From assembly GCA_902729315.2 (NCBI GenBank), contig LR746265.1, positions 3,452,892-3,516,891 of the forward strand: a stretch of DNA of 64,000 bases. The letters run 5' to 3'. The notes beneath the pieces are model-generated. The model made no database searches. It had not been told where the DNA came from and worked only from the letters and a program-made list of their open reading frames with translations. This document shows positions 35,431 to 44,357 of the stretch, piece after piece; positions within the stretch are counted from its first letter, which is position 1, and each line of letters opens with the position of its first letter. The position numbers and the translations under genes were made by a program. The DNA comes from Spirodela intermedia (lineage: Eukaryota; Streptophyta; Magnoliopsida; Alismatales; Araceae).

Positions 35431-37528
<2,098 letters not shown>

Positions 37529-38586: not shown

Positions 38587-41500
38587 ATGAGATTGTCGTC
38601 CTGGTGGAGGCCGTGGAGTCGGCCTCCATTCTGTCGTAACCTTCACCTGTTTGTCCTTCTCGTCGCCCTCCCAGCGTTCCTCAAATGTAGATCGGGATGC
38701 GTCGAGGCCACGGGGGCCTCGGATTCCCTAGGTCTGGTGGACTCGAAAGCTCTCCCTGCTGCCGGGGCGGTGCACTTTGGTTTCGGAGAGGTTCTGGGTG
38801 ATACTCCGGGTCACGGGAAGGCCCCAGGGAGCAGGTCTCTCCTATCGACATCGTCGGAGTGAGTATATCCCCCTAATTTTTACATTTTTCCTCAGAAATT
38901 TCTCCTCTCTGATTCAGTTAGCACGGGCTCTTCAGAAACGGAGTGTGTTTATCTGTTGCACGATGCTCCTCTTTACAAACTAAATCCTGTCCCTGAAATT
39001 TTAGTGCCGGGGCATTGTTTTCTACGAGGAGATCACCCTCATTTAATACTCAAGGATACAATACTGCCTAATCCATAAGTTTCTGGAAAACCTGACAAAA
39101 AAACCATGACTCGGGATGTTCTACGGATGAACACGCCTCACTTGTATATCAGGCTCCTTAAACCTCACGAATTGCTCAAATATTTGCCTCTTTGCCGATA
39201 TGCTCACCCATGACAACTTGCAAGCATCCTCCTCTGAGATTTTATAAAACTAGAGAAGATCAAATCACGTGCAACGTCCGTAGCATTCTTTTCGACTACC
39301 AGATTTATCTTGGGTGAAACCGTCCACACACTCTGAGTAAATTATCTCGATAATCAAATGTTTGAGTATTTCATGCCCAACGTTCTAGAAAAAAAAACCC
39401 TCATTTGCTCGATTTGTGCCGATACTAAACTTTGGGCCAAACACTTGCTCGATTCTAACCGAAAATAGATTATAACCTATATACATTATCTAAAAATAAA
39501 GACACGATGTACACAGCATATTAACGGTGTTAAGCGATGAGAAGGAAATATCAATAGCAGAACCAGAAAGTTGTTAGCGTTTCATAAATCCCGAGGAACT
39601 CAATTTTTTTTTATGAAACAGTCCAAACATGCCGAACAAAAAATTGGCAATTTTAAATGGATGTTAAACATATTCCCATTTTTATCTTTTGTAGATAAAT
39701 ATCTTATGCAATTTCTTATTTGGGAACATTATTCAGTCATATAAAAATATTCCATTTTGATTGTATCTGATAACAGGTATACGACAGCTTGCCTTGACAA
39801 TGAGTTGAATGCTTTTTCTCCTTTATGCATTTCTCATTGTTCTCTTCCTTTTGTAGAACTGGTGCCCATGACACTGCAGCTATTGCTTTCTTGGATGGCA
39901 CTATTTATTTGATGGATAGTACATCCGGAATACTTTATGGTTCTTTTTCATCTGGCTCTCCACTTTCAACGTCGTATCAGGCCTTTGCTACTTCTGAGTC
40001 TGATCCTGAGTTTGATGAACCGGATGTTTCCTGTCCCCTTGGTTCTGACAGCTATTTTATTTCTCCTGGTGATGACTGGAATTTATATGAGCACAGCAAC
40101 CAATTTGGGAAGAGGGTGCGTTCTTGTGATCATTTTTTTCCATGAAGTTTTATTTGTCGTGTTCCCAATACTCACTGCCCCTATCTTATTGCCCAGAGAC
40201 TGGATACGACCATAGAGGAATATGTTGAAAGCACTCCTCGGATTTCGATAGACGGAGGGATTACTCTTGGTTCAAAGAGATCAACTATGTTTCTTGTAGA
40301 TATAAAGAATGGAAAGATAGTTAGTTCTCGTTGGTCTGCTGACAACCAGCAAGCTGCAGAGTTTAAGGGTCAGCAGGATCAGTTAGCGTTATTTGATATA
40401 CATACTCAAGTATGGGCTGAGTCAAATCCTTCAACTATTCTACCCGTTCTCGTTACAAGGACAGATTATACTATAAATCATTTTTTAAACTCGAGCAAAC
40501 CTCTGTGGGGCATGACACTTTCTGTCATTGAGGCATCTTCTTGTCAAGTATTCAAGGATGACCTATCTTTGCTTGCTGGACATGAACTTGGAACGAAATA
40601 TGATGGTTTTATGAAGCAGTGCAGCACAATGATTCCTGTACATCGGATTCATGGAATAGATCCAATGAAGCATGGGTTGGTTTCTTCCTCTAGAATTTCT
40701 CTACCTGAAAGCCCAAAAACACCAGTCTTGGCTGCCTCACGTTCGAACAATCGTGCGAGCAGTCATCTGAAACATGGGGATAATTTTTCAGGGGTTCAGA
40801 AGATGCATAAGCTTCGTAGCGCAGAGAGATCGTTGAGTTCATTGAGTGAGAGACAAACCTTTAATTCTGTATCCGAAAAATCAGACAAAGGAAACATTTC
40901 TAATGGGACATCTCTCCATTTCAGTCAAGCTGCTCCAGAAGCGAGGCCTGATGTTTTCCATGGATCTTTTGGCTGGTTCCTTGTCTCATTTTTCTTGGTT
41001 TTTTTCTTTCTCTACTACTTGAAGATGAATTATCACGTTAAATCTGATAAACAATCAGGTATGCCTGATAACCATTCTGCAACCACTAAGAAGAAAAAGG
41101 CTCGAAAGTCCGGAAATAGTACTGGTTCCACTACCAGGGAAAATGATGCTGTGGCTGGTGATCTCAAACAAGACGGGGATGAATTGATGAGCTTTTCATG
41201 GATCTTTTGGCTGGTTCCTTGTCTCATTTTTCTTGGTTTTTTTCTTTCTCTATTACTTGAAGATGAATTATCACGTTAAATCTGATAAACAATCAGGTAT
41301 GCCTGATAAGCATTCTGCAACCACTAAGAAGAAAAAGGCTCGAAAGTCCGGAAATAGTACTGGTTCCACTACCAGGGAAAATGATACTGTGGCTGGTGAT
41401 CTCAAACAAGACGGGGATGAATTGATGAGCTTTTCCAGAGTTGATGAGTGCTTTGAAGGCAGGCGGATTGGAAAGCTTTTTCTGTCAAACATTGAAATTG

Positions 41501-44139
41501 CCAAGGGCAGTAATGGGACTGTTGTCCTCGAGGGTGTCTATGGTGGGCGTCCAGTCGCTGTTAAGCGTCTTGTTCGCGCTCATCATGACGTGGCTTTCAA
41601 AGAGATTGAGAATCTTATTGCTTCCGATCAACATTCAAACATTGTTCGATGGTTTGGAGTGGAGTATGACACGGATTTCGTTTACATTGCTCTTGAGCGT
41701 TGCACTTGCAGCTTAAACGATTTGATCCTTGTATGTTCAGATTCTTCAGTGCCTGCATCACCATATCAAACTCAGATTCAAAACCAGAAAACCGAGTACA
41801 AGATTAGTTTGAAAGGCATCGATGGGGTTGTTGAACTTTGGAAACCAGATGGATGTCCGACGCCCCAATTGCTAAAAATAATGAGGTTAGTAGAGTTTCT
41901 TTCTCTCAAAGAATCTCTTTCTTTGAGATATTACGTCTTAATTTTGTCTTGTCATCTTTTGTATCTCTTGGCGCTTGCATCTCATATGGGTCTATTATTG
42001 AAGTTGGGGAAAATATGTGAGAGAAACCAGTGCGGCAATCTTCACTGACAGGCACAGTTACAGCTTTGCCCGTTGTGTTTTTAGATTGGAGACTGAGGAA
42101 GAGATGTTATTGACAGCCGTAAGAGAAGTGTAAAGAGATGTAGCTGAGATGATAGATTTAAATGGACGAGTACTATACATAAAAGAAAGGTAGGTTGACT
42201 TCACTTATGATTGCTGCGCTGTGGGCCACCAGTTAAGGGAAGAAGAGGAAATTTAGGTAGCTTAAGAGCCTTTTGTCATCATTTGGAGAACTGTAAGTGC
42301 AGTGCATCAAGTAGCTGGAAGGTTTCAAAGATAACATCAACTCTCACTTAGTAGAGTGCATCGGAAATTGGAAAGACATTCATTACTAAAGGGGTGTGAG
42401 CAGTGAGAAAAGCAGAGAGGAAAGGAGGGAGATTGTGTTGTGTTCCTTAGTGGGACGACCTACTCACAGCCTTGCTGTCACCCAGCAGCCAGAATTTTTA
42501 CTTCTGCTAACCCTGACAATTCCATTAATCCATCACTTAGTCTAGGTCACTTTGACTACAAGCCACAGTTGTACCAGCAATTGAAGGATCGCGTAAGCTA
42601 GCTGAACCCAATAACCCAGATCGAAAGCCTGGTCACTCATCGGTCTGGCAGTCTCAAGGAAACCTTAATGTACACCCGAGTATATTCAAAATGGTCCGCT
42701 CAATCCCGTTCAAGCAGATTAATTATGTTGGCGATTATTCACTGAAGTTGAAGCAAGAAAAGATAACCCATTGGATAGATATCAGTTTGAAGTTGAAGCA
42801 AGAAAATATAATTTTACTACTTCAAAACCAATGTTATCATGTAGTTTTTTACTAATGTATTTTGAATGCCACAGTGAAATATGTTCTTATTTATATTTCT
42901 TCCGATTGAAATCACCATCCTTAGTGTTAAATCAGAGGTTTTTCTTTGCGTATTTTTCTCTTGCCATGTGGGCTAGAAGCTTATTTATGGCTGGTTTCTA
43001 ATATCTAGATGAATGATGCAGGGATGTGGTTTCTGGGCTCGCGCATTTGCACGAGCTGGGAATCATCCACAGAGATATCAAGCCTCAGAATGTTTTAATA
43101 ACCAACAATAGGTGCCTCTCTGCAAAGCTTTCGGACATGGGTATTAGCAAGCGCCTACCCCAAGATATGTCTTCTTTAGGGCACCATGCCACCGGTATGG
43201 CCAGGACATAAACTCTACCCATTTTGACTCCAAAATCTGTACTTGGTCCCTGAAAATTATAACACCCAGCTTTCCAAATCTGTGCCTTCGCCAATGATTC
43301 ATCCAGGGAGCGGGAGCTCTGGATGGCAAGCTCCTGAACAGCTGCTACACGGGCGCCAAACCAGAGCAGTTGACCTGTTCAGCCTGGGATGCGTTCTTTT
43401 CTTCTGCATTACGAAAGGCAGGCACCCGTTCGGTAGTCACTATGAGCGCGACTCAAACGTCATCAACAATCGCGTGGACCTGTTCTTGGTGGAGCACATT
43501 CCGGAAGCCGTCCATCTGTTTTCCATCTTGTTGGATCGCGACCCGGAGAAGAGGTGCCTTTCCCCTGCTCGATCTCGATCTCGTATCTCCAACAAATGGG
43601 TCATCTGATTTCCAGTTACCTCTCATTATTTCCTACTGGGTCTTCTGTAATGCAACATTTTTTCGCAGGCCGCGGGCTGCAGAGGTGCTGCAGCATCCTC
43701 TTTTCTGGAGCCCAGAGATGAGGCTCTCATTCCTGAGAGACACCAGCGACAGGGTCGAGCTGGAGGAGAGGGAAAGCGACTCTCAACTCCTGAGAGCGTT
43801 GGAGAGCATCGGCCAGGCGGCATTCGGCGGCAGGTGGGGCAACAAGCTTGAAGCCCCCTTCATCATGGATATCAGCCGATATCGAAGATACAGGTTCGAG
43901 AGTACGCGCGATCTACTGCGGGTCATCCGCAACAAGCTGAACCACTACATGGAACTCCCAAGAGCACTGCAGGTATCCCCTCCAGCTCGTCCTTTCCACT
44001 GAGTCTTTGAGCTTTTTGCTTCTATTAGCCCTCATTCTGCACCTCTAACATCCCAAAACCACAGGGACATTAACACTGATATCTCGTTCTACCCCAGAAA
44101 AAACCCATATACTCTCTCTCTCTCACTCACATTAACACT

Positions 44140-44181
<42 letters not shown>

Positions 44182-44357
44182 TCTCTCTCTCGCTTTCTCT
44201 CACATGGCAGGAGCTTCTGGGTTCAGTTCCTGACGGATTTGACAAGTACTTCTCAACTAGATTCCCAAGACTCTTGATGGAAGTTTACAAAGTGATGTAC
44301 TGGCACTGCAGGGACGACGACTCCTTCAGAAAGTACTTCAAGAGCACGGAGAACTGA
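38587..44357 (+). CDS. IRE1: IRE1 ER-stress sensor kinase/endoribonuclease, with duplicated exon segment
   Basis: Exons: 38587-38858, 39857-40115, 40197-41058, 41297-41885, 43022-43194, 43307-43553, 43669-43972 and 44211-44357, giving 950 residues if the 238-bp segment 41059-41296 is spliced out. Residues 1-37 are a signal peptide. The luminal sensor has DGTIYLMDS and DDWNLYEHS blocks. One TM helix GWFLVSFFLVFFFLYYLK starts near 436. A Lys/Ser-rich juxtamembrane region precedes the kinase, which has GSNGTVVLEG, VAVKRL, IHRDIKPQN and LSDMGISKRL (DMG in place of DFG, normal for plant IRE1). The C-terminal KEN RNase ends HCRDDDSFRKYF. IRE1 senses misfolded ER proteins and cuts bZIP60 mRNA in its unconventional splicing. 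Without the extra splicing event the frame stops at 41277-41279 after 537 residues, before the kinase. Every other junction is in phase. Confidence 0.92.
40959..41434 (+). repeat. 238-bp tandem duplication inside IRE1 exon 3
   Basis: Copy 1 is 40959-41196 and copy 2 is 41197-41434. I see three substitutions: CTACTACTT/CTATTACTT, GATAACCAT/GATAAGCAT and GATGCTGTG/GATACTGTG. Both break points sit next to TTTTC, a possible microhomology. The unit encodes the TM helix and the Lys/Ser-rich juxtamembrane region. 238 is 3x79+1, so the duplication shifts the frame. Confidence 0.97.
41059..41296 (+). other. Candidate nascent intron created by the duplication
   Basis: Each copy contains ACAATCAG|GTATGC. 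Using the GT of copy 1 as donor (41059) and the AG of copy 2 as acceptor (41295-41296) removes exactly 238 bp and rebuilds ...DKQSGMPDKHS.... The donor CAG|GTATGC is strong for plants. The duplicated TM code supplies a T-rich tract at about 41217-41257. The acceptor context is weaker: the last 40 bases are A-rich and the CTGAT branch-site match at 41282-41286 is close to the AG. Splicing is inferred, not observed. Confidence 0.65.
44112..44200. repeat. (CT)n in the last IRE1 intron
   Basis: Two CT tracts separated by CACTCACATTAACACTGAT-like sequence, just before the final acceptor CATGGCAG. Confidence 0.85.

What the first reader, a model, noticed from the sequence alone, without database searches (positions are those of the whole stretch)
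40959..41434. IRE1: exon duplication that appears to have created a new 238-bp intron
A 238-bp piece of IRE1 exon 3 is present twice in tandem, differing at three bases. The duplication breaks the frame (238 = 3x79+1). Each copy contains CAG|GTATGC, so splicing from the GT in copy 1 to the AG in copy 2 (41059-41296) removes exactly one unit and restores the sensor-TM-kinase frame. This is the geometry predicted by the tandem-duplication (AGGT) model of intron gain, a process with few clear natural examples. The high similarity of the copies suggests a young event. TTTTC at both break points suggests how it arose.
Basis: partly seen in the sequence, partly recalled or inferred. Interest (0 to 1): 0.92.

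Follow-up and report, generated by a model that had tools for sequence, protein, structure and literature searches.

The report
Duplicated exon may be new intron
In a duckweed stress-sensor gene (IRE1), a 238-letter piece of an exon stands twice in a row in a way that should break the protein unless the cell splices one copy out as a brand-new intron; the DNA fits that reading, but no RNA or read data were at hand to prove it.

Summary
A 238-bp piece of IRE1 exon 3 is tandemly duplicated (40959-41196 / 41197-41434; 3 substitutions, no indels). It breaks the frame; leaving out 41059-41296 restores a 950-aa IRE1.

(1) One-unit geometry is automatic for any exonic duplication holding AGGT (58% of 238-bp ORF windows do). 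A donor this strong plus a T-rich tract is rarer: 0.8%, criterion set post hoc.
(2) The break points share TTTTCCA, not just TTTTC (0.24% by chance); the junction lacks one C.
(3) The acceptor is weak (15 of 20 native acceptors score higher), and a better-scoring AG at 41262 would truncate the protein.
(4) The genome is inferred to be Spirodela intermedia clone 8410, a hybrid assembly of a partly heterozygous clone. Four of five small scaffolds compared differ from a chromosome by 1-4%, one by 0%. So 1.3% between copies does not exclude a haplotype mis-join.
(5) A second full-length IRE1 on C7 has this exon uninterrupted.

Verdict: a good but unproven candidate for natural AGGT-type intron gain, a known mechanism. 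Public reads could settle it.

The parts
38587..44357 (+). IRE1 gene. Exons: 38587-38858, 39857-40115, 40197-41885 (holds the duplication), 43022-43194, 43307-43553, 43669-43972, 44211-44357
   Evidence: Spliced CDS of 2853 nt without internal stop. Kinase PF00069 and RNase PF06479. The 16 best-scoring PDB sequences for the kinase/RNase part are all named IRE1. Exon borders were set by eye from GT-AG sites and frame.
40959..41196 (+). Copy 1 of the 238-bp unit (TM helix and juxtamembrane linker)
41197..41434 (+). Copy 2 of the unit; three substitutions from copy 1
40954..40960 (+). TTTTCCA at the left break point
41193..41198 (+). Junction between the copies, TTTTCA (one C fewer than the ends)
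41431..41437 (+). TTTTCCA at the right break point
41059..41296 (+). Candidate phase-1 intron, GTATGC...AATCAG, exactly one unit
   Evidence: Removal restores the 950-aa frame; splicing itself is inferred
41056..41064 (+). Candidate donor CAG|GTATGC
   Evidence: 7 of 20 native donors score as high or higher
41261..41262 (+). Competing acceptor AG (TTGAAG) just behind the T-rich tract; its use would give a 469-aa truncated protein
41213..41258 (+). T-rich stretch (TM-helix codons of copy 2) that could act as polypyrimidine tract
   Evidence: Sequence; the tract rule is met

Best explanation
A short tandem duplication arose in IRE1 exon 3 between two TTTTCCA words, by microhomology-mediated repair or slippage. 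The two copies of CAG|GTATGC then supply a donor in copy 1 and an acceptor in copy 2. The spliceosome removes 41059-41296 from enough transcripts to keep making full-length IRE1, helped by the T-rich TM-coding stretch acting as polypyrimidine tract. Retained or mis-spliced transcripts carry an early stop upstream of four exon junctions and would be expected to go to nonsense-mediated decay. Shown here: the duplication in the assembly, the shared heptamer, the frame break and its exact restoration, the donor strength, the otherwise intact gene, and an uninterrupted paralogous exon. Inferred: that the duplication is in the living genome, that this junction is spliced, the branch point, and NMD.
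For: Near-perfect tandem copy with a 7-nt word at both ends. Removing one unit restores the full protein. The donor is the second-best distinct exonic GT of 358 by matrix score and beats 13 of 20 natives. The needed CAG is the only AG between 41262 and the copy-2 donor. Only 0.77% of ORF windows combine such a donor with a T-rich tract (post hoc criterion). The other 2615 nt of CDS are intact; a gene dead since the duplication would be expected to carry 1.9-3.3 disabling changes at the point estimate of age (P of none 0.04-0.15; the indel ratios and transition weights are assumed). The paralog on C7 has the exon uninterrupted.
Against: No RNA or read evidence. The acceptor scores below 15 of 20 natives, and AG 41262 scores 8.9 against 2.5. 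By summed score the intron is 11th of 573 frame-keeping GT-AG pairs in exon 3. By U1 pairing energy six exonic GTs of the three genes are better than this donor. The intact-CDS argument has wide error: P of none is 0.50-0.67 at the lower limit of age. Of the three differences, one fits the prediction that the intronic member changed (41072), one has the exonic base differing from the paralog (41015, synonymous), and one cannot be polarised. A haplotype mis-join is not excluded.
Confidence: 0.5

Rival explanations
1. The duplication is real but the transcript is not usefully spliced. This allele or gene makes only a truncated, kinase-less product or decayed mRNA, and the C7 paralog and/or the other allele covers for it.
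For: Weak acceptor with a frame-breaking competitor. A complete second IRE1 exists. The copy divergence is small, so there was little time for further decay.
Against: The rest of the CDS is intact. The donor is strong and exact frame restoration is available.
Confidence: 0.22
2. Assembly artefact: two haplotype versions of one single-copy stretch were joined head to tail.
For: The inferred source assembly is a MaSuRCA hybrid whose raw form (191.9 Mb) was filtered for duplicates from heterozygous regions (PMC7645714, passages). Four small scaffolds match chromosomes at 96-99%, similar to the 98.7% between the copies.
Against: No N in the window. A 7-nt word at both ends is not what a long-overlap join would need (inference). 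Homopolymers are identical in both copies. No other array as similar with a period of 100 bp or more in 272,901 bases. A fifth small scaffold (C20) is 100% identical to C3 over 9,733 bases, so not every redundant piece differs.
Confidence: 0.2
3. The duplication is real and its main product is a truncated isoform. Transcripts are retained, or spliced 41059-41262, giving a membrane-anchored IRE1 sensor without kinase and RNase that could act as a decoy; the retained form adds a second very hydrophobic segment.
For: AG 41262 scores 8.9 against 2.5. The retained form ends near IFWLVPCLIFLGFFLSLLL, mean hydropathy 2.62 against a maximum of 1.98 for the native TM.
Against: An early stop upstream of four exon junctions predicts decay (general rule, recalled). 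TTGAAG has A at -3, seen in 0 of 20 native acceptors here. No data on expression.
Confidence: 0.08

Closest known systems
AGGT / tandem-duplication intron gain (Rogers 1989; vertebrate ATP2A1, Hellsten et al. 2011; both known here through PMC4974935, introduction and results sections read)
   Same: Exonic unit with AGGT duplicated in tandem; GT of copy 1 and AG of copy 2; the protein is unchanged after splicing. ATP2A1 is likewise said to have polypyrimidine tract and branch point inside the unit.
   Different: ATP2A1-type splicing was reproduced by experiment in ATP2A2. Here splicing is not shown.
Potato RdRp intron (Ma et al. 2016, PMC4974935)
   Same: Plant gene, tandem duplication, cryptic exonic donor activated; the risk of a false assembly duplication is discussed there too.
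   Different: There the unit spans an intron-exon border and the 3' signals come from an old intron, with 106 RNA-Seq and 53 WGS reads in support. Here the unit is wholly exonic and unsupported by reads.
Drosophila novel introns backed up by NMD, incl. Bap170 (Farlow et al. 2010, PMC2809761, passages seen)
   Same: A weak splice site and a length that is not 3n; retention exposes a stop. Bap170 is called reminiscent of tandem duplication.
   Different: In Bap170, 206 of 218 bp gained are spliced out and an imperfect 8-aa repeat stays. Here exactly one unit would be removed.

Membership tests
[quoted passage not shown]
   In the assembly. In genomic reads: not testable here.
Intron gained by tandem duplication (AGGT model) | AGGT inside the unit, giving GT...AG of one unit | tested here: met
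   One AGGT in the unit; of two frame-keeping pairs of length 238, the AGGT one scores 10.2 and the other -3.6.
Intron gained by tandem duplication (AGGT model) | Removing the intron leaves the protein unchanged | tested here: met
   950-aa open frame
Intron gained by tandem duplication (AGGT model) | Competent acceptor, branch point and polypyrimidine tract | tested here: inconclusive
   T-rich tract present; acceptor weak and outscored by AG 41262; no branch-point model was run.
Intron gained by tandem duplication (AGGT model) | Intron spliced in RNA | not testable with these tools
   No RNA data; homolog search switched off.
Intron gained by tandem duplication (AGGT model) | Absent from relatives (gain, not loss) | tested here: inconclusive
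   The C7 paralog has the exon uninterrupted. Orthologs in other species could not be reached.
IRE1 kinase/endoribonuclease | Kinase domain followed by 2-5A-type RNase domain, after a TM segment | tested here: met
   PF00069 and PF06479 above cut-off; PDB matches; hydrophobic segment
IRE1-type unconventional (non-spliceosomal) intron | CNGCNG cleavage motif (recalled) at the splice sites | tested here: not met
   No CNGCNG in 40959-41434; hairpins were not folded.

The most novel reading that the evidence does not exclude
A very recent, perhaps still segregating, wholly exonic AGGT intron in a plant stress sensor. The T-rich codons of a transmembrane helix served as a ready-made polypyrimidine tract, so TM-coding exons would be favoured places for this route of intron birth, and the strong donor with a weak acceptor shows the intron before its signals have been tuned.
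Probability: 0.3. Interest if true: 0.75.

Novelty: new member of a known kind. Interest (0 to 1): 0.52.

Why it matters
Intron origin is an old open question, and cases where the source sequence is still readable are few (so stated in PMC4974935, introduction read). If spliced, this would be a plant example of the original, wholly exonic AGGT form with both copies still 98.7% alike, testable by mapping public reads. It would also let one watch how a new intron with a strong donor and a weak acceptor is processed. If not spliced, it is a recent break in one of two IRE1 genes, or a warning about false duplicates in hybrid assemblies.

Tried and rejected
Rejected: IRE1-type cytosolic splicing of its own mRNA (no CNGCNG motif in the duplicated stretch). 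Rejected: dispersed repeat or transposon (the unit matches only its own two places in the genome). Rejected: organism S. polyrhiza 7498, which I first assumed and searched with '32 pseudomolecules'. That assembly had a contig N50 of 18 kb and about 10% gaps (passage), while this window has no N. Contig sizes fit S. intermedia 8410 instead.

Led nowhere: homolog search (switched off); polarising all three differences with the C7 paralog (dS about 2 in this region); primers in PMC8216227 to check the species (none found); literature on duckweed IRE1 (5 papers, none on duckweed IRE1 by title and abstract start). The first splice-site table held one mis-set GAPDH donor, corrected. That moved the new donor from 4 of 20 to 7 of 20 natives scoring as high or higher. 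The 358-GT table and the U1 energies are and were not redone; the acceptor scores do not depend on that donor.

Full report
What is there. The window lies on contig C2 of a 136,496,439-base, 32-contig genome. C9 is 13,401,826 bases long. C18 reaches beyond 1.6 Mb, while C19 is 154,227 bases and C20-C22, C24, C26 and C28 are smaller still. The S. intermedia clone 8410 assembly is described with 18 pseudomolecules, 136.6 Mb in all and a largest scaffold, Si09, of 13.4 Mb (PMC7645714, passages). I therefore infer that duckweed; no call names the organism, and the paper's 70 scaffolds do not equal the 32 contigs here. The gene at 38587-44357 encodes a full-length IRE1: a hydrophobic start, a lumenal region, a TM helix, a kinase (PF00069) and a 2-5A-type RNase domain (PF06479). 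The 16 best-scoring PDB sequences for the kinase/RNase part are all named IRE1.

The duplication. Inside exon 3 (40197-41885), 238 bases coding for the TM helix and juxtamembrane linker stand twice, head to tail, with 3 substitutions and no indels. The unit matches nowhere else in the genome. Both ends carry TTTTCCA (40954, 41431); the junction carries TTTTCA (41193). A shared word of 7 or more near both ends, with an offset of up to 1 allowed post hoc, arose in 0.24% of 200,000 random segments. This looks like microhomology-mediated repair or slippage with one C lost. The junction and its lost C fall within the predicted intron.

The frame. Read through, the message ends after 537 aa, with a second hydrophobic segment read in the shifted frame. 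With 41059-41296 removed it encodes 950 aa. With donor 41059 and the AG at 41262 it ends at 469 aa. Because the intron would run from position 101 of copy 1 to position 100 of copy 2, every position of the unit has one exonic and one intronic member. With an outgroup this is a built-in test: derived bases should lie in the intronic members. Only the paralog was available. At 41072/41310 it favours the prediction (exonic Lys against paralog Arg). At 41015/41253 it goes the other way: the exonic base differs from the paralog and the intronic one agrees (synonymous). The third position cannot be aligned with confidence.

Splice signals. The reference set was 20 introns of three genes (6 + 6 from the two IRE1 genes, 8 from the neighbouring GAPDH-like gene), set by eye. 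For the donor CAG|GTATGC, 7 of 20 natives score as high or higher. It is second among the distinct exonic GTs of 358 by matrix score, but six are better by U1 pairing energy (made with one mis-set donor in the matrix). The acceptor ATCAG|G scores 2.5, with 15 of 20 natives above it. TTGAAG at 41262, right behind the T-rich tract, scores 8.9. The needed CAG is the only AG between 41262 and the copy-2 donor. By summed score the pair is 11th of 573 frame-keeping pairs in exon 3; the top pair (41059-41740) would delete kinase-domain sequence. A 20-intron matrix is small and no branch-point model was run, so I treat splicing here as plausible, not predicted with confidence.

How surprising is it? 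In 28 non-overlapping ORFs of at least 250 codons (32,646 bases, used as stand-ins for exons), 58% of 238-bp windows hold AGGT. 10.9% hold one with a donor at least this strong, and 0.77% also have a T-rich tract within 120 nt upstream of the AG. The last criterion was chosen after seeing the case. So geometry alone is expected, whereas the set of signals is unusual. The T-rich tract is there because the codons of this TM helix are rich in T.

Is the gene alive? Outside the unit 2,615 nt of CDS are intact. If the gene had been dead since the duplication, 1.9-3.3 disabling changes are expected at the point estimate of age, with both copies neutral and an assumed indel:substitution ratio of 0.1-0.2 (none: P 0.04-0.15). 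At the lower limit for three substitutions P is 0.50-0.67. The C2/C7 comparison shows strong constraint on kinase and RNase (dN 0.157, dS 1.58), which says nothing about the time since the duplication. C7 carries a second complete IRE1 (939 aa) with this exon uninterrupted, so loss of this one could be tolerated.

Is it real DNA? The 8410 assembly was made with MaSuRCA from Nanopore and Illumina reads; the raw form was 191.9 Mb and was filtered for duplicates from heterozygous regions (PMC7645714, passages). Five small scaffolds were compared with the rest. 2.5-kb probes of C19, C21, C22 and C28 match one chromosome region each at 96-99% (C19-C5 98% over 1,692 of 2,500 bases, C21-C9 98%, C22-C1 96% in two pieces, C28-C6 99%). 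A 10-kb piece of C20 is 100% identical to C3 over 9,733 bases. C24 and C26 were fetched but not searched. The four look like residual haplotigs, so 1.3% between the tandem copies is also what a haplotype mis-join could show. Against an artefact stand the gap-free window, the shared heptamer, identical homopolymers, and no second array as similar with a period of 100 bp or more in 272,901 bases. The one other array of period 100 or more (C2:3411953, 90%) has a 171-bp unit, a multiple of three, and overlaps a 405-codon open frame. For contrast, synonymous diversity in the sister species S. polyrhiza is given as 0.00093 (PMC6423293, passage).

Comparison with what is known. Rogers' AGGT model, ATP2A1 with its experimental reproduction in ATP2A2, fission-yeast 24-bp cases and the potato RdRp case are summarised in PMC4974935 (introduction and results read whole). 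Farlow et al. [quoted passage not shown] the weak acceptor and the stop on retention fit that, the strong donor less so. So the kind is known. What would be special is a wholly exonic unit in a plant with copies still 98.7% alike. In nine literature searches no listed title or abstract start described this intron or duckweed IRE1. Gao and Lynch 2009 (known to me only through PMC4974935 and memory) treats internal duplications as common, so similar plant cases may be listed somewhere I did not see.

Verdict. Observation confirmed; interpretation partly supported. [quoted passage not shown]

Noticed in passing
window 35431-37528: Nine-exon GAPDH-like gene directly upstream of IRE1 (named by eye from its sequence), 449 aa; used as a source of reference splice sites.
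   Followed up: partly
L006 2141-8695 (C7): Second full-length IRE1 gene, 939 aa, 7 exons, with the exon that is duplicated on C2 uninterrupted.
   Followed up: yes
L010 268-10000 (C20) and L009 1-9733 (C3): A small scaffold is 100% identical to a chromosome over 9,733 bases: redundant sequence left in the assembly.
   Followed up: partly
C19, C21, C22, C28 (L032, L033, L034, L037): Small scaffolds matching C5, C9, C1 and C6 at 96-99%: probably residual haplotigs, pointing to a partly heterozygous clone.
   Followed up: partly
L023 1953-2283 (C2:3411953-3412283): 171-bp (57-codon) tandem repeat, 90% matches, overlapping a 405-codon open frame with Cys/His-rich DC1-like sequence (name by eye).
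   Followed up: partly
window 43973-44210: A native IRE1 intron is also exactly 238 bp long, probably a coincidence.
   Followed up: no
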